From Jonesiaceae bacterium BS-20 (GTDB taxonomy: Bacteria; Actinomycetota; Actinomycetes; Actinomycetales; Cellulomonadaceae), in the NCBI GenBank assembly GCA_039995105.1, contig CP146203.1, positions 1,798,001-1,862,000 of the forward strand: a stretch of 64,000 nt of DNA, written 5' to 3'. Position numbers and translations under genes: made by a program. Below are positions 5,755 through 47,025 of this stretch, in pieces. The notes under the pieces were generated by a model that worked only from the letters and a program-made list of their open reading frames with translations, did no database searches and had not been told where the DNA came from. Numbering within the stretch: the stretch's first letter is position 1; every line of letters begins with the position of its first letter.

Positions 5755-5760
5755 AACCGT

Positions 5761-5795
5761 GCTAGGTGGCGCCGAACCCAACGGCGCCACCTAGC
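5761..5795 (+). terminator. Terminator of map-ppgK
   Basis: A 13-bp perfect stem GCTAGGTGGCGCC / GGCGCCACCTAGC with a 9-nt loop begins 7 bp after the ppgK stop. It has no T-tract and ends only 20 bp before the next start codon (5816), so the next gene must have its own promoter overlapping the hairpin or depend on readthrough. Confidence 0.75.
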
Positions 5796-5815
5796 AAACG
5801 TTGACCACAATCAAT

Positions 5816-6526
5816 ATGACCTTCCGGGATAGCGCCTTGGCCAAGACCATTAGCCCCACCTTTATTCACGCCACCATGCTGCATGATGGCCGAATGCTTC
5901 TTGAACTCCTCAACGGGCACTACAGTTCGCTGGCTTTCGCCGAGTGTTCGGTTAAGGACCAAGACGGTGTCGCCCAGATTCTCCTGACCTGGACAAGGTC
6001 TACGTTCACGCAGGAACAGCCCCGTACCGCAGCGACCCAAAATCTCTCAACCAGTTACGCACAGGGGTATCTCATTTCCCTGTCAGACCAACCCAGCCTC
6101 GACTTGCGGCGGCACATCCCTTGGCGCACAGATACCTCAGTTGATTTCAAGCAAGCATTCTCCGGCAAGCCCACCAAGATCGAGGACGCCAAGGTGCAGC
6201 GCTATTGCCAAACAATCGCCGATAATCTCAAAACGTTTTACGTAACGGCCCAAGAAAAGGCCCGCCTTCGACTCCTTGGGGGCCACTACCGCCGCGTCAT
6301 GGATGAGTATCTAAAAATCATGAAGTCCAAAACCACGGTCTCGGATCAAAACTATTACCAGGCATGGAGCAAGGGCATTGGCGCCATCATCGCCAATGAG
6401 CGCTACCTCTTGCTCGCGCAAAGCGACCCTGATCGCAGTAAGTATCTCAAGCTGACAGCCGAGGCTTCGAACCTCTATAACTGGTACATGGATCTAGCGC
6501 GCGCAGGTGTCTCCCGCTCCCGCTAG
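5816..6526 (+). CDS. Unrecognised protein, family X copy 1
   Basis: I do not recognise this 236-residue protein. It has no signal peptide, membrane span or known catalytic motif. It is homologous over its length to the product at 45260-45982. Shared blocks include FIH...L.NGH near residue 20-35, the spacing to TWTRSTF / HWSSGTF, and a C-terminal core: copy 1 VSDQNYYQAWSKGIGA and NERYLLLAQ...LYNWYM, copy 2 PSDQSYYHEWQQTIGA and REYLRLAQ...LYNWSQM. The start is the ATG at 5816 because both copies then begin 15 residues before a common [SK]PT motif; a TTG at 5801 is the alternative. No Shine-Dalgarno sequence is visible. Its 3' end overlaps the convergent repeat-protein gene by 33 bp. Confidence 0.75.
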   Translation: MTFRDSALAKTISPTFIHATMLHDGRMLLELLNGHYSSLAFAECSVKDQDGVAQILLTWTRSTFTQEQPRTAATQNLSTSYAQGYLISLSDQPSLDLRRHIPWRTDTSVDFKQAFSGKPTKIEDAKVQRYCQTIADNLKTFYVTAQEKARLRLLGGHYRRVMDEYLKIMKSKTTVSDQNYYQAWSKGIGAIIANERYLLLAQSDPDRSKYLKLTAEASNLYNWYMDLARAGVSRSR

Positions 6527-6530
6527 ATCC
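6490..6530. terminator. Hairpin inside overlapping 3' ends
   Basis: GGATCTAGC (6490-6498) pairs with GCTAGATCC (6522-6530). The two arms contain the stop codons of the convergent genes 5816-6526 and 6494-7318, so coding ends and a possible two-way terminator are the same DNA. Confidence 0.45.
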
Positions 6531-7318
6531 CAATCTTCATTTGCGAGCCACTTTGCAGCGCGAGAATCTCCGAGTTCTTTTGCCAGTGCAATGAAGGCCT
6601 TGGCTTCAAGCGGTTTACCGACTTGGTTCAGGTTGATCCCGAGATTGAAAGCCGCGTGCGACTCTCCGGCACTAATTGCCGCTCGTAGTACCTTTTCCTC
6701 ATCTTCAAATCTGCCCAACTTGGCGTAGAAGTTCGCAAGTGGAACACTTGCCAACAGATCACCAGCTGCCCAATAACCTTCCAAGATTGAAAGCCCACCA
6801 TCTTGAAGCTCCTTGCCATACTGGAGAACATACTCCACGGCAGCATCCGCATTGTGATCCATATGCCGCTGCAACACCGACTTGGCTTCCTCAATGAATC
6901 CGAGGCGTTTGGCCATTTTTGCATGATGGTAGGCGGACTCAGGAACGTCTGAACCTAAGCGGTACCATTTCAGCGCGGACGCGTATTTTCGTTCTTTTCT
7001 CAATAGGTCCCCTCGCATGACAGCTGCCCTTGGGTCCCCCTGGTGGTAGGCGATCTTGTACCACTTCTTGGCACCTGAAACATCATTTCGGTCATCAAGA
7101 AACCTGCCCAGGTTAAGCGCGGCAACTTCAACACCTCGCTTGTGGGCTGCCACATAAAGCCGCGTAATAATCTTGGTCTTGGTCAGAGCACGCAAGTCAT
7201 TTGCAAGATTGAAGATCCCATCGGGATCACCGTCTAGGATCCAATCGAGGTCTAGATCAATAGCCTGTTTGGAGGATAACTTGATTGCCTCAACGTTGTT
7301 CTCTGGACTCGGCTGCAT
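6494..7318 (-). CDS. Sel1/TPR-like repeat protein
   Basis: The 274-residue protein is built of helical repeats of about 35 residues, seen as AALNLGRFLDDRNDVSGAKKWYKIA, AAVMRGDLLRKERKYASALKWY and AAFNLGINLNQVGKPLEAKAF, typical of Sel1 or TPR solenoids that mediate protein contacts. It has no signal peptide or enzyme motif. The start is the ATG at 7318 with AGGAGGG upstream; the frame is open to 7462, but that part overlaps rnpB and is not protein-like. It converges on family X copy 1 with a 33-bp overlap. The specific partner is unknown. Confidence 0.75.
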   Translation of the reverse strand: MQPSPENNVEAIKLSSKQAIDLDLDWILDGDPDGIFNLANDLRALTKTKIITRLYVAAHKRGVEVAALNLGRFLDDRNDVSGAKKWYKIAYHQGDPRAAVMRGDLLRKERKYASALKWYRLGSDVPESAYHHAKMAKRLGFIEEAKSVLQRHMDHNADAAVEYVLQYGKELQDGGLSILEGYWAAGDLLASVPLANFYAKLGRFEDEEKVLRAAISAGESHAAFNLGINLNQVGKPLEAKAFIALAKELGDSRAAKWLANEDWDLAGAGDTCAR

Positions 7319-7934: not shown

Positions 7935-8708
7935 GTGCTTATCTTGCTGCCTCCTTCTGAAGGAAAATCCGCTCCCGCTTCTGGCCCCACAATCGATTGG
8001 GCAGGCCTCAGCAGCCCGGAACTTAACCCGCGGCGCAAGGAACTCCTTACGGAGTTGGCTGAAGTCTCAGCACACACCGACGCTCTTACGTTGCTCAAGG
8101 TTGGCGCCAGCCTTGACGCCGAAGTAGCCGCAAATACTAGGTTGCTTGCGGCCCCGTGCGCACCGGCCGCCCGGGTCTATACCGGCGTGCTTTACGCGGC
8201 CGCCGGCCTTGACTCACTGAACGCCAAACAGCAAGACCGCGCTCATCGCACGGTTCGTACCGTCTCCGCGTTATGGGGTGCGGTGAGTCCCACGGATCTT
8301 ATTCCCGCGTATCGGCTTTCCATGGGAGTCAAACTCCCCCAAACCGGCAACTTAGCAACCGCATGGCGCAAGCACTTGGATCAGGTCCTTGCCCCGCTGG
8401 CCGAGAATACGGTCATTGTGGACTGCCGGTCATCCGCGTACCTCAACGCCTGGAAACCAGGAAAGGCCCTGAACACTGATTGGGTTACCGTTCGCGTACT
8501 GCGGGAACTCAACGGCAAGCGTACGGTGGTGTCCCACAATGCCAAGCACGCCCGGGGCATCTTGACGGCACACCTGTTACGCCTCGACACCGAGCCTAGG
8601 ACCGCCCAAGAGTTGCTCGTGGCAGCACAGCAATGCCCCGACTTCATCAGTGTTGAACTGCTTGAAACCGGGGCACGCACTGCAACGTTAGAACTCGTAG
8701 TTACCTAA
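7935..8708 (+). CDS. yaaA: Peroxide stress protein YaaA (DUF328/UPF0246)
   Basis: Homologues limit free iron and DNA damage under peroxide stress. The N-terminus LILLPPSEGKSAPASGPTIDW is the family hallmark; ARVYTGVLYAAAGLD, LWGAVSPTDLIPAYRLSMG, VIVDCRSSAYLNAW and VVSHNAKHARGIL follow in family order. The length of 257 residues is normal. The start is a GTG at 7935 because it puts the LILLPPSEG strand at residue 2; no strong ribosome binding site is seen. It is divergent from rnpB and appears to be a single-gene unit. Confidence 0.92.
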   Translation: MLILLPPSEGKSAPASGPTIDWAGLSSPELNPRRKELLTELAEVSAHTDALTLLKVGASLDAEVAANTRLLAAPCAPAARVYTGVLYAAAGLDSLNAKQQDRAHRTVRTVSALWGAVSPTDLIPAYRLSMGVKLPQTGNLATAWRKHLDQVLAPLAENTVIVDCRSSAYLNAWKPGKALNTDWVTVRVLRELNGKRTVVSHNAKHARGILTAHLLRLDTEPRTAQELLVAAQQCPDFISVELLETGARTATLELVVT

Positions 8709-11780: not shown

Positions 11781-13082
11781 CTACATGCCCAACACTCCGG
11801 GCAGCCACAGCGAAAGCTGCGGCACAAAGGCCACCACGAACAGTACGGTTATAAGTGCAATGAAGAACGGCACCAGCGCCTTAATGACCGGCTCTGGGCG
11901 CAGCCCCGCAACTCGTGCTCCCACGAACAAGACGTTGCCCACGGGCGGGGTAATTGTTCCTAGGCACAGGTTGAAGGTGATCAAAATACCAAAGTGAATG
12001 GGGTCCATGCCTAGGTCCACAACGATTGGCAAGAAGATCGGTACGAAGATCAAGATCGCCGGGGTTGGATCCATGAAGGTACCAATAACCAACATGATGA
12101 GCATGATCAAAATAATGATCATGGTTGGGGAATTGGTGAGGCCAAGCAATCCTGAGGAGATGGCTCCTGGGATACCCGAGTAGGCCATGACCCACGCCAT
12201 GATCGTCGAAACACCGACCAGTAACATGACGATCGCGGTGGTTTCCGTAGCGTTGATAAAGATCCGCTTAAGGTCACTGACTTTGATTGCCTTATACGCA
12301 AACCCCAGAATCAGGCAGTACACCACAGCAATTGCTGCGGACTCGGTTGGGGTGAAAATACCGGCGAGAATACCGCCAATGACCACCACGATCATGAGGA
12401 TCGAGGGCACGGCCCGCCAGATCGTCTTAATCGCAACTCCGAACGTCACTGTCTCTTTCTTATTGAGCTCGGGGCGCTTACGCACGTAAAGCCAAACAAC
12501 GAGCATGCACGCCGCAGCCCACAAGATACCCGGAATGTAACCGGCAATAAACAGGGTCGCGATCGACGTGCTTGAGACAAGCGAATACACAATGAGCGTA
12601 TTACTCGGAGGGATCAACATACCCGACGGTGCCGAGGCAATATTGACCGCCGCGGAGAAGTTCTTGTCGTAACCTTCCTTCTCCTGGCGCGGTCCAATGA
12701 CTCCACCTACGGCTGCAGCTGAGGCCACTGCCGCCCCAGAAACCGAGCCAAACAGTGCGTTAGCAACGACGTTTGTCTGGGCAAGGTTACCGGGCATCCG
12801 GCCCACCAAGACCTTAGCGGCGTCGATAAGCCTGCCCGCAATTCCGCCATTATTCATCAGGACGCCAGCCAAAATAAAGAACGGAATGGCAAGCAGCGTA
12901 AACGAGTTGATACCGGTGAACAACCGCTGGGCGGCCACAAATGAAGCCTTTTCCGCGCCGATTACGGCTGCCACAGCAACGAACGCTGAGAAACCTACCG
13001 CAACCGCAATAGGTACCCGCAAAAGCAGTAAAATACCGATGCCGAGAACAAGAATAATTCCCGCTACGAGTGCCGGATCCAT
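11781..13082 (-). CDS. dctM: TRAP transporter large permease subunit
   Basis: The main transmembrane subunit of a tripartite ATP-independent periplasmic-type transporter driving sodium- or proton-coupled uptake of an organic acid. The 433 residues contain about 12 membrane segments, starting LVAGIILVLGIGILLLLRVPIAVAVG. Family landmarks are IPFFILAGVLMNNGGIAGRLID, NVVANALFGSVSGAAVASAAAVG, PPSNTLIVY, PTESAAIAVVY and FNLCLGTITPPVGNVLFVG. It is the last gene of dctP-dctQ-dctM, 1 bp after dctQ. The adjacent uronate genes suggest hexuronates as the substrate. Confidence 0.95.
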   Translation of the reverse strand: MDPALVAGIILVLGIGILLLLRVPIAVAVGFSAFVAVAAVIGAEKASFVAAQRLFTGINSFTLLAIPFFILAGVLMNNGGIAGRLIDAAKVLVGRMPGNLAQTNVVANALFGSVSGAAVASAAAVGGVIGPRQEKEGYDKNFSAAVNIASAPSGMLIPPSNTLIVYSLVSSTSIATLFIAGYIPGILWAAACMLVVWLYVRKRPELNKKETVTFGVAIKTIWRAVPSILMIVVVIGGILAGIFTPTESAAIAVVYCLILGFAYKAIKVSDLKRIFINATETTAIVMLLVGVSTIMAWVMAYSGIPGAISSGLLGLTNSPTMIIILIMLIMLVIGTFMDPTPAILIFVPIFLPIVVDLGMDPIHFGILITFNLCLGTITPPVGNVLFVGARVAGLRPEPVIKALVPFFIALITVLFVVAFVPQLSLWLPGVLGM

Positions 13083-35047: not shown

Positions 35048-35097
35048 AAAATGCCGGTGGCGCCAAACCCAATTGGGTTTGGCGCCACCGGCATTTT
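35048..35097 (+). terminator. aceE terminator, a perfect 50-bp palindrome
   Basis: AAAATGCCGGTGGCGCC... (35048-35072) is exactly complementary to 35073-35097 with no loop bases between the arms. It starts 17 bp after the aceE stop and ends in TTTT. Confidence 0.88.
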
Positions 35098-42266: not shown

Positions 42267-43760
42267 CTAGGCGCGTACCCGGCGGGCAATAAATAGCCCC
42301 GCACCGACCACGAGCAGGAGGCCAGCCAGTGTGGCGGGCACCTGCCATTGCGCCCCGGTCTCCGGCAATTCTTCATCCGGAGTAGCTGGGTCGGTAGGGT
42401 CAGTCGGATCCGTTGGGTCGGTAGGGTCAGTCGGGTCCGTTGGATCAGTCGGGTCAGTCGGGTCAGTCGGGTCAGTCGGTTGTTCCTTAGCGAAATTCCA
42501 AGTTCCCACAAAGACAATGTCGTTTCCATCGACAACCACGCTAGTTGGGTTCCAAGCGTCAAAAGTCCACGTACCCGCGTCGGTTTTCACTTCAGTCTGA
42601 GCGGGAGCCTGCGGAGTTATAGTCTCCCCCTGTGTCACCGAATGCGGCTCCGGGAGCAATACATTGACACTATCTGGGAGGTCCAGTCCGTCGGCTTTTG
42701 AAGCAAAGCTGTACCCGGCCTCAAATGTCGCATCCGGGTTGACCTCGAACTTCCAGGTTCCAACAAAAGTGATGTTCTCGCCCGCCATAACAGCCGTTGT
42801 GGGTTCCCAGCCAACAAATGTCCACACAGCTTGATCGTGTGCAACCGTTGTCTGGTCAAGTTCAGTTGCAACTACCTCGGCGCCGTCGCGCAGCATGGTC
42901 TGGTTCCCAGGTAGTAGACCCATGACTTCAGCCGGCAGTTCCCGCCCCGGGGTCCCCGAGGCGAACGTGTGAATCGCGTCGTGCGTTTGCGTCATCGAGA
43001 GAGTGACATCATTACCAGTGTCATCGAATGTAATTGGCATGCCAATGTAAAAAGCATCCATCGCCAACTGTCCCACAACCCGTGGCTCGGTCATAGTAAA
43101 AGCATCGCCGGCAACGAACTTCTGCTGTTGTACGTACAGCGCCTGGTTTGGCGTCAGAAGTTGAAGCTTGTTTGGCTGGTTCGCGTCTAGTTGCGGCGCC
43201 TTGACCTTGGAACCGTCCTCGTTTATCAGGTTGAAGTTGGCCGAGTACATTCCAGTAGCCCCATCGAAACTAACGTCGGTGCAGCGCATAAACGACGGGA
43301 ACTTTGTCTCTGAATTTTGCTCGACAAACTGCGGCTGGAGCGCATCACAGGTGACAAAGCCTTGGTTGACACTCACGTAGTTGGGGTCAACCGTGAATGA
43401 GATTGTCCAGTTGCCCGTAAAAGTCTTTTGCTTCCACCGTTCAGGCGTATTGCCACTGCCCAAAGACCACAAGGACTTTGCTGTCCGGTACCTCGACCAC
43501 ACATTGGACATGTCCAGATTGCCTCGGTAAGCAATCTGATAAGCATCTTGGGCGGTGTTTCCTTTGGCGGAATCGTACAAGAATTCAGATCCGGTGGTAA
43601 TTTGCCCATTCTCACCCACTGCATCAGCGGTGACCGTGATGTCGACGGGAGTAGGTGCCGCAGTTGCGGGACCAGCCAATGGGGCAAGTAAACCAAGACT
43701 CAAAGCCAGCGCGAGCAGTAACCCCTTACGGCGAGATTTGATTTGTGTGCGTGAAGTCAT
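42267..43760 (-). CDS. LPXTG-anchored surface protein with SHIRT-like repeats
   Basis: A 497-residue cell-wall protein. The signal peptide is at 1-34 (GLLLALALSLGLLAPLAGPATA). The N-terminal 35-290 part is unrecognised. Two repeats of about 75 residues then each end FVGWEP...FVGTWKF or FDAWNP...FVGTWNF, resembling SHIRT/MucBP-like stalk domains. A TDP tripeptide repeat (about 11 copies) spans the wall, and the C-terminus has LPETG, a hydrophobic span and ARRVRA for sortase anchoring. It probably functions as an adhesin or stalk. No sortase gene is in the window. Confidence 0.88.
   Translation of the reverse strand: MTSRTQIKSRRKGLLLALALSLGLLAPLAGPATAAPTPVDITVTADAVGENGQITTGSEFLYDSAKGNTAQDAYQIAYRGNLDMSNVWSRYRTAKSLWSLGSGNTPERWKQKTFTGNWTISFTVDPNYVSVNQGFVTCDALQPQFVEQNSETKFPSFMRCTDVSFDGATGMYSANFNLINEDGSKVKAPQLDANQPNKLQLLTPNQALYVQQQKFVAGDAFTMTEPRVVGQLAMDAFYIGMPITFDDTGNDVTLSMTQTHDAIHTFASGTPGRELPAEVMGLLPGNQTMLRDGAEVVATELDQTTVAHDQAVWTFVGWEPTTAVMAGENITFVGTWKFEVNPDATFEAGYSFASKADGLDLPDSVNVLLPEPHSVTQGETITPQAPAQTEVKTDAGTWTFDAWNPTSVVVDGNDIVFVGTWNFAKEQPTDPTDPTDPTDPTDPTDPTDPTDPTDPTDPATPDEELPETGAQWQVPATLAGLLLVVGAGLFIARRVRA
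42385..42481. repeat. 9-bp tandem repeat coding for TDP units
   Basis: Variants of GGGTCAGTC (minus strand encodes Pro-Thr-Asp) repeat about ten times within the surface-protein gene. Slippage in whole 9-bp units keeps the frame, so stalk length may vary between strains. Confidence 0.85.
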
Positions 43761-45259: not shown

Positions 45260-45982
45260 ATGCAAGTACCGGGACTTACCAGTACGACCTTTGTGAAGCC
45301 GACCTATCTAGATTTGGCCTTCATCCATTCCGGTCACGTTTACATTCGCTTGCTTGCGCGCAATCATTGGAAACTGGCATCTGCTGAGTTTCACGTAACT
45401 GATCGCGCAGCGATCATTGAAACCTTGTCGCATTGGTCTTCGGGCACCTTTTCCGAGAGCGTTCAGGAACCTTACGTTACGCCCATCACCACCCACGATT
45501 ACCGCAACGGCTTCAAAGCAGTCCTCTCGGAAGGCGAATACCAGAGCACCCAAAGTTTTGCACCGACTTGGGAGCCTCTCCAATCAGCGTTTACCCGGGG
45601 CCTGGCCGGTGGGAGGGGAATCGAAGACCCCGAGGCCGCCAGCTCTTTTGCACATGAAGCCGCGCAACAATTTGCAGCTTTCTTCACAGCCACCCAAAAG
45701 TTATGCAAAGCGCAACTTGCAACCGGCCAATATGGTCATGTACTCGCCGGTTACTTGGAGACCACCATGTCCAAGGTCGCACCCTCAGACCAGAGTTACT
45801 ACCACGAGTGGCAACAGACCATTGGGGCGGAATTACGGGGCAGAGAGTACCTTCGCCTTGCCCAAGACCCGCAGGTACGCCACTTCTACTGTGCCATCCT
45901 CAGCCGTGGCCAGCAGTTGTATAACTGGAGCCAAATGCGGTCAAGACTCGGGATCTCGTCCTCTTTCGAAGATCGAATGTGA
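45260..45982 (+). CDS. Unrecognised protein, family X copy 2
   Basis: 240 residues with no recognisable domain, signal peptide or membrane span. It is a diverged paralogue of the product at 5816-6526: similar length, a matching N-terminal block (IHSGHVYIRLLARNHWKL against MLHDGRMLLELLNGHYSSL) and a C-terminal helical block (KAQLATGQYGHVLAGYLE, PSDQSYYHEWQQTIGA, REYLRLAQ, QQLYNWSQM). The start is the ATG at 45260, which aligns with the start of copy 1. There is no obvious Shine-Dalgarno sequence, so it may be leaderless. It diverges from peptide deformylase and ends in a strong hairpin. Confidence 0.78.
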   Translation: MQVPGLTSTTFVKPTYLDLAFIHSGHVYIRLLARNHWKLASAEFHVTDRAAIIETLSHWSSGTFSESVQEPYVTPITTHDYRNGFKAVLSEGEYQSTQSFAPTWEPLQSAFTRGLAGGRGIEDPEAASSFAHEAAQQFAAFFTATQKLCKAQLATGQYGHVLAGYLETTMSKVAPSDQSYYHEWQQTIGAELRGREYLRLAQDPQVRHFYCAILSRGQQLYNWSQMRSRLGISSSFEDRM

Positions 45983-46846: not shown

Positions 46847-46918
<72 letters not shown>

Positions 46919-46947
46919 CAACAACTGAATAATAATTGAATAAGCAT

Positions 46948-47019
<72 letters not shown>

Positions 47020-47025
47020 CAGTAT

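What the first reader, a model, noticed from the sequence alone, without database searches (positions are those of the whole stretch)
5816..6526. A two-copy protein family with no recognisable function (family X)
The products at 5816-6526 and 45260-45982 are clear paralogues by eye (similar length, N-terminal IH...L.N.H block, C-terminal SDQ-YY--W---IGA, ERYLLLAQ/REYLRLAQ and LYNW blocks), yet show no known domain. One copy lies just downstream of map-ppgK and the other diverges from peptide deformylase, the two enzymes of N-terminal methionine processing. Both seem to lack a Shine-Dalgarno sequence. The link to protein maturation is only inference from position.
Basis: partly seen in the sequence, partly recalled or inferred. 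Interest (0 to 1): 0.6.

Follow-up and report, generated by a model that had tools for sequence, protein, structure and literature searches.

The report
Orphan accessory actinobacterial protein family
Two distantly related copies of an unnamed, patchily distributed bacterial protein sit in this genome; in the one genus where many strains could be compared it occurs only with a toxin-secretion island and nothing ties it to methionine processing, so it is probably an accessory gene, perhaps of bacterial competition, whose exact job is unknown.

Summary
The core observation holds. X1 (5816-6526) and X2 (45260-45982) are paralogues (28% over 225 aa, E 8e-29; 96 bits against 24 for the best of 500 shuffles) without a significant Pfam, NCBIfam, PADLOC or PDB sequence match. 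The suggested link to methionine processing does not: 0 of 14 loci in other genomes has map, ppgK or def beside the gene, and a strong hairpin separates ppgK from X1. The family is rare: 15 genomes in my searches. In Curtobacterium 7 of 66 genomes carry it, each at or near the edge of a type VII secretion/toxin island; 0 of 28 informative island-less loci carry it, though this is not shown independent of descent. It evolves fast and is often broken. It is not the required immunity for the resident toxin: a sister strain has an identical toxin end but only a stub of X. Best guess, weakly held (0.33): a lone cytosolic binding protein of the orphan-immunity kind. The predicted fold (pLDDT 74) has no convincing match. 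New family of an ordinary kind; interest modest.

The parts
5816..6526 (+). X1, 236 aa; alternative start TTG at 5801
   Evidence: called by my codon-usage gene caller
45260..45982 (+). X2, 240 aa, divergent from def; long branch in the tree
   Evidence: not called by my gene caller
5760..5796 (.). perfect 15-bp hairpin between ppgK and X1, terminator-like but without a T run
6494..7318 (-). TPR-type protein convergent with X1, overlapping its 3' end by 33 bp; neighbour only
   Evidence: TPR hits E 8e-5, just under the curated cut-off

Best explanation
X is a lineage-restricted accessory protein, probably cytosolic: a small N-terminal domain (three-stranded antiparallel sheet plus helix) and a C-terminal helical bundle (predicted). 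SHOWN: real homologous family; patchy presence; faster protein evolution than a neighbouring gene and several broken copies; in Curtobacterium found only beside a type VII secretion/toxin island. INFERRED: it works as a stand-alone protein that binds and neutralises something that only some strains meet, most likely a competitor's effector (an orphan-immunity mode), so that it is kept where the threat exists and lost elsewhere. The two copies here would be two specificities. The target is unknown, and it is not the resident island toxin.
For: Patchiness: 1 of 221 genomes of the own family, 3 of 396 of an order sample, 1 of 384 of a class sample, 7 of 66 Curtobacterium, 1 of 23 of the genus of Arthrobacter sp. 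GMC3. Island tie: all 6 X loci with a qor flank plus the truncated 7th (L021) show the T7SS island markers, against 10 of 38 informative X-less loci (Fisher p 4e-4). In 4 of 4 gene-called island-less loci (of 28) qor runs into mannitol-type genes, in L048 after two others. In L016 the island protein has a TNT domain, PF14021 E 2e-16, and a WXG100 protein is present (other loci by tblastn similarity). dN/dS 0.29-0.65 over 15 pairs of Curtobacterium X genes (0.29-0.51 without G305) against 0.14-0.25 over 10 qor pairs. Broken copies: nonsense (L005), frameshift (L039), truncations (L021; L045). No long hydrophobic stretch in X1 or X2.
Against: G285 has a toxin whose last 100 residues are identical to that of G290, yet only a stub of X: X is not the required immunity for the resident toxin. 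X lies on the strand opposite to the toxin and to most presumed immunity genes. No relative of the Curtobacterium island genes lies near X in the window or in the 7 other non-Curtobacterium loci tested. The island tie is not shown independent of descent: 1-3 of 5 independent pairs go the same way, none the other way, underpowered. No significant immunity or defence family match. The fold gives no firm hint.
Confidence: 0.33

Rival explanations
1. X is a single-gene anti-phage or other defence protein, parked in variable regions.
For: Patchy, fast-evolving, often broken, in an island in one genus. One A3-profile hit (E 1.3e-5 for that genome, one of 398 searched) fell in a SAVED-domain protein, a sensor of CBASS defence.
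Against: PADLOC gives only E 0.02 hits for single members. The SAVED similarity is one short stretch (BLASTP 44 aa, E 0.002; hhalign probability 15%, E 0.0017) and the predicted X structure there is helical. I saw no obvious defence genes beside X in the gene lists, read by eye only, not scanned with PADLOC.
Confidence: 0.2
2. X is a passenger with an unrelated, mildly useful role (regulation, stress, metabolism), and its place in the Curtobacterium island reflects an integration-tolerant spot next to qor.
For: Neighbours differ between the non-Curtobacterium genomes (by eye); the qor-proximal spot looks prone to rearrangement, with a ~50-bp repeat of the qor 5' region inside the island of G288.
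Against: 0 of 28 informative island-less loci carry X at the same spot, although the spot exists there too.
Confidence: 0.3
3. X is a working part of the type VII secretion system (chaperone, regulator or substrate).
For: Island association in Curtobacterium.
Against: 10 islands lack X; the window and the 7 other non-Curtobacterium X loci show no relative of the island genes nearby, though T7SS elsewhere in those genomes was not tested; no Pfam match.
Confidence: 0.08
4. X acts in N-terminal methionine processing or protein maturation.
For: In this genome X1 follows map-ppgK and X2 diverges from def.
Against: 0 of 14 other loci keep such a neighbour; hairpin between ppgK and X1; no match in 220 of 220 other family genomes.
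Confidence: 0.03

Closest known systems
Orphan immunity proteins of polymorphic toxin systems (PMC10539506 and PMC9484751, seen as search listings and starts of abstracts only)
   Same: Small, stand-alone, fast-evolving, patchy genes; in Curtobacterium at the edge of a T7SS toxin island
   Different: No cognate toxin found, not in the toxin operon (opposite strand), no sequence match to a known immunity family, no functional test
TNT (tuberculosis necrotizing toxin domain, PF14021) T7SS toxin islands
   Same: X is cargo at the qor end of such islands in Curtobacterium (TNT tested by Pfam in L016 only)
   Different: X has no TNT match and is not needed for immunity to the resident toxin; no relative of these genes near X elsewhere
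SAVED sensor domain (PF18145)
   Same: One short weak profile hit
   Different: No SAVED match at E <= 1 for any of 13 X members

Membership tests
Orphan immunity protein | Genetic association with polymorphic toxin loci | tested here: inconclusive
   Seen in Curtobacterium (7 of 7 X loci) but not in the window or the 7 other loci tested, and not shown independent of descent
Orphan immunity protein | Homology to a known immunity family | tested here: not met
   No Pfam match below E 0.09 for 13 members
Orphan immunity protein | Neutralises a toxin by binding | not testable with these tools
   needs a bench test
Cognate immunity of the resident TNT toxin | Present whenever that toxin is present | tested here: not met
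   G285 has an identical toxin end and only a stub of X; 10 islands lack intact X
N-terminal methionine processing | Conserved neighbourhood with map or def | tested here: not met
   0 of 14 loci adjacent
SAVED (CBASS sensor) | PF18145 match | tested here: not met
   0 of 13 members at E <= 1
Known anti-phage defence family (PADLOC) | PADLOC profile match | tested here: not met
   only two single-member hits, E 0.021 and 0.024
Known fold | Structural match covering a domain | tested here: inconclusive
   best Z 7.0 for the helical part, 4.4 for the N-domain; Foldseek none at E <= 0.001; best for the N-domain is a ROK sugar kinase at E 0.20, probability 0.90, TM 0.34

The most novel reading that the evidence does not exclude
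X is a new class of stand-alone orphan immunity (or defence) protein in Actinomycetes, mobile with T7SS toxin islands and then kept as solitary chromosomal copies with different specificities, such as X1 and X2 here.
Probability: 0.2. Interest if true: 0.55.

Novelty: new member of a known kind. Interest (0 to 1): 0.27.

Why it matters
It adds a protein family without a match in the Pfam and NCBIfam copies searched and removes a misleading guilt-by-association link to methionine processing. If the orphan-immunity reading is right, it would show how immunity-type genes leave toxin islands and persist alone in other actinobacteria.

Tried and rejected
Phages: 9 records, best E 0.09, none covering 80% of the query; plasmids none; viral contigs: 69 pattern matches, none confirmed. 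PHROG hits are single-member (best E 0.005) and do not recur across the 13 members. Profile search of PDB sequences: nothing below E 0.28. SAVED hit followed and set aside. The in-frame TGA of Arthrobacter X was considered as a recoded codon and rejected: by eye it stands where relatives have ordinary residues, and the TGA reported for G719 lies upstream of a start from which the frame is open. X1 and X2 as a recent duplication rejected: X1 is nearer to Arthrobacter X and to G719 X (34-35%) than to X2 (25%), though the tree leaves the two window copies together with Arthrobacter at 84/90. Recent transfer by composition: not seen, GC 0.55 and 0.54 against a gene mean of 0.576 +/- 0.026; X2 has a lower GC3, 0.60 against 0.64 +/- 0.05. 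Promoter and terminator scans: nothing useful. The N-domain's Foldseek resemblance to part of ROK sugar kinases (E 0.20) was not kept: VIA-align gives such kinases Z 3.5 at most. Fold searches listed no known family; a family that is not listed is not excluded. Three literature listings looked for T7SS, TNT, Curtobacterium and orphan immunity, none for this family itself, which has no name, so I make no claim about what is in print. Labels such as qor, mannitol operon, sdh, urease and presumed immunity genes are recalled from sequence, not from a call.

Full report
WHAT IS THERE. BLASTP gives 62 of 225 identities, 96.3 bits, E 8e-29; the best of 500 shuffles of X2 gave 24.3 bits. The genome (3.53 Mb, one contig) gives these two and no other at E <= 1. 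No Pfam, PADLOC or PDB sequence match is significant for X1, X2 or the 13 family members scanned, and no NCBIfam match for X1 and X2, the only two run there. PHROG hits are weak and single-member. One detail is corrected: the N-terminal 'IH' letters of the two proteins are out of register; the aligned block is P-T-x7-H-x-G with L-L further on. The 'no Shine-Dalgarno' remark is right for X1 (-1.3 kcal/mol; 6% of 54 called genes are as weak or weaker) and undecided for X2 (-5.6; 44% of genes are as weak or weaker, but 36% of random sites reach -5). A caution: my codon-usage caller found X1 but not X2.

WHO HAS IT. Searches with X1 or with profiles found it in 1 of 99 genomes (own plus 98 relatives; only the own genome), 1 of 221 genomes of the own family, 3 of 396 of an order sample (own, G445, G536), 1 of 384 of a class sample, 1 of 23 genomes of the genus of Arthrobacter sp. 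GMC3, 7 of 66 Curtobacterium, 8 of 398 of that family's sample (four of the 8 are Curtobacterium already counted, and one, G1012, is a SAVED-domain protein that I drop), and 2 of 335 of the Arthrobacter family sample. One genome-contig scan with two short patterns found 2 loci. Samples overlap, only some first-look candidates per genome were scored, and scans by pattern miss distant relatives, so these are lower bounds. In all, 15 genomes bear 16 loci: 13 show no break and 3 are broken (L005 nonsense, L039 frameshift, L021 truncated). A seventeenth, a stub, turned up in G285. Assembly errors cannot be excluded for the breaks.

NOT METHIONINE PROCESSING. Of 14 loci outside the window, none has map, ppgK, def, the TPR gene or the gene right of X2 beside X by tblastn at E 1e-4; the only hit is a map-like gene about 7 kb away in L039. 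The loci are 9-21 kb long, so this tests close linkage only. Between ppgK and X1 stands a 15-bp perfect hairpin, -22 kcal/mol with DNA parameters, z -7.4; it has no T run, and the terminator scan did not list it.

THE CURTOBACTERIUM ISLAND. In the six Curtobacterium loci with a qor flank X lies directly beside a quinone-oxidoreductase-like gene (qor), or in L020 one gene away from it. Beyond X come small presumed immunity genes, a toxin-like protein (740-780 aa in six of the seven loci; split by my caller in L006), WXG-type small proteins and further genes that I read as T7SS parts (untested). In L016 Pfam gives TNT (PF14021) E 2e-16 for the toxin and WXG100 E 1.4e-6 for one small protein. I located qor in 63 of 66 Curtobacterium genomes at E 1e-100 and fetched 39 of the 59 X-less sites, reaching about 11.5 kb past qor. 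Island markers were found in 10 of the 38 informative X-less loci and in all 7 X loci; none of the 28 island-less loci carried X or an HMM-detectable remnant (Fisher p 4e-4). In 4 of 4 island-less loci that I gene-called, qor is followed by mannitol-type genes, in L048 after two other genes. On a qor tree of 45 loci the island label changes 10 times and X 5 times; independent pairs agree in 1-3 of 5 and never disagree, too few for a test. So X belongs to the variable cargo of this island, but the association is not shown to be independent of descent.

NOT THE IMMUNITY OF THE RESIDENT TOXIN. G290 (X+) and G285 (X-) are neighbours on that tree (99/74). Their toxins are 95% identical overall and 100% over the last 100 residues. 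G285 keeps only about the first 17 codons of X before the frame departs. X was therefore lost in the presence of the same toxin end; other immunity genes in G285 could of course cover for it. G288 carries a second ~50-bp copy of the qor 5' region inside the island, a sign of recombination at this spot.

EVOLUTION AND STRUCTURE. dN/dS is 0.29-0.65 over 15 pairs of Curtobacterium X genes (0.29-0.51 without the divergent G305) against 0.14-0.25 over 10 pairs of qor from five of the same genomes: under selection, but weaker. X2 is a long branch (2.4 changes per column). AlphaFold2 on four sequences gives pLDDT 73.6, pTM 0.67: three antiparallel strands and a helix, one more strand, then a helical bundle; the N-domain alone gives the same topology at pLDDT 68. 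No Foldseek match at E <= 0.001 in PDB or viral models; the best for the N-domain is a ROK sugar kinase (E 0.20, probability 0.90, TM 0.34). VIA-align best Z is 7.0 (Translin, 80 residues, 2.9 A) for the helical part and 4.4 for the N-domain, within the range the tool calls common. No conserved catalytic set stands out; the invariant residues D48, W59, F111, G156, Y158, Y181, Y197, L198, R207, L220 look structural (inference).

WHAT IT MOST LIKELY DOES. The pattern (rare, fast, sometimes broken, alone, in a toxin island in the one genus where this could be tested) is that of a conflict gene. I commit to an orphan-immunity-like binding protein at 0.33, with a passenger role (0.30), lone defence gene (0.20), T7SS part (0.08) and methionine processing (0.03) as rivals. 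Everything after 'conflict gene' is inference, and 'conflict gene' itself is a pattern argument, not a demonstration.

Noticed in passing
window 5760-5796 and 35048-35097: Two strong hairpins share the core GGTGGCGCC(G/A)AACCCAA; these are the only two places in the window with it, possibly a repeated terminator-like element.
   Followed up: partly
window 42267-43760: Protein with PTDPTDP repeats (tandem repeat 42387-42479) and an LPETG end, probably a sortase-anchored surface protein.
   Followed up: no
window 46847-47020 and 10731, 20317: Two neighbouring tRNA-Asn genes, and two tRNA-Val genes with the same TAC anticodon.
   Followed up: no
L019:9485-9547 and 6124-6175 (reverse complement 8455-8517 and 11827-11878): About 50 bp of the qor 5' region is repeated inside the T7SS/TNT island of G288, flanking the X-bearing segment.
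   Followed up: partly
L016:12051-12689: A stand-alone TNT-domain protein (PF14021, E 2.9e-18) within the island, with a 46-50% identical relative on the far side of qor in the six Curtobacterium X loci that reach there.
   Followed up: no
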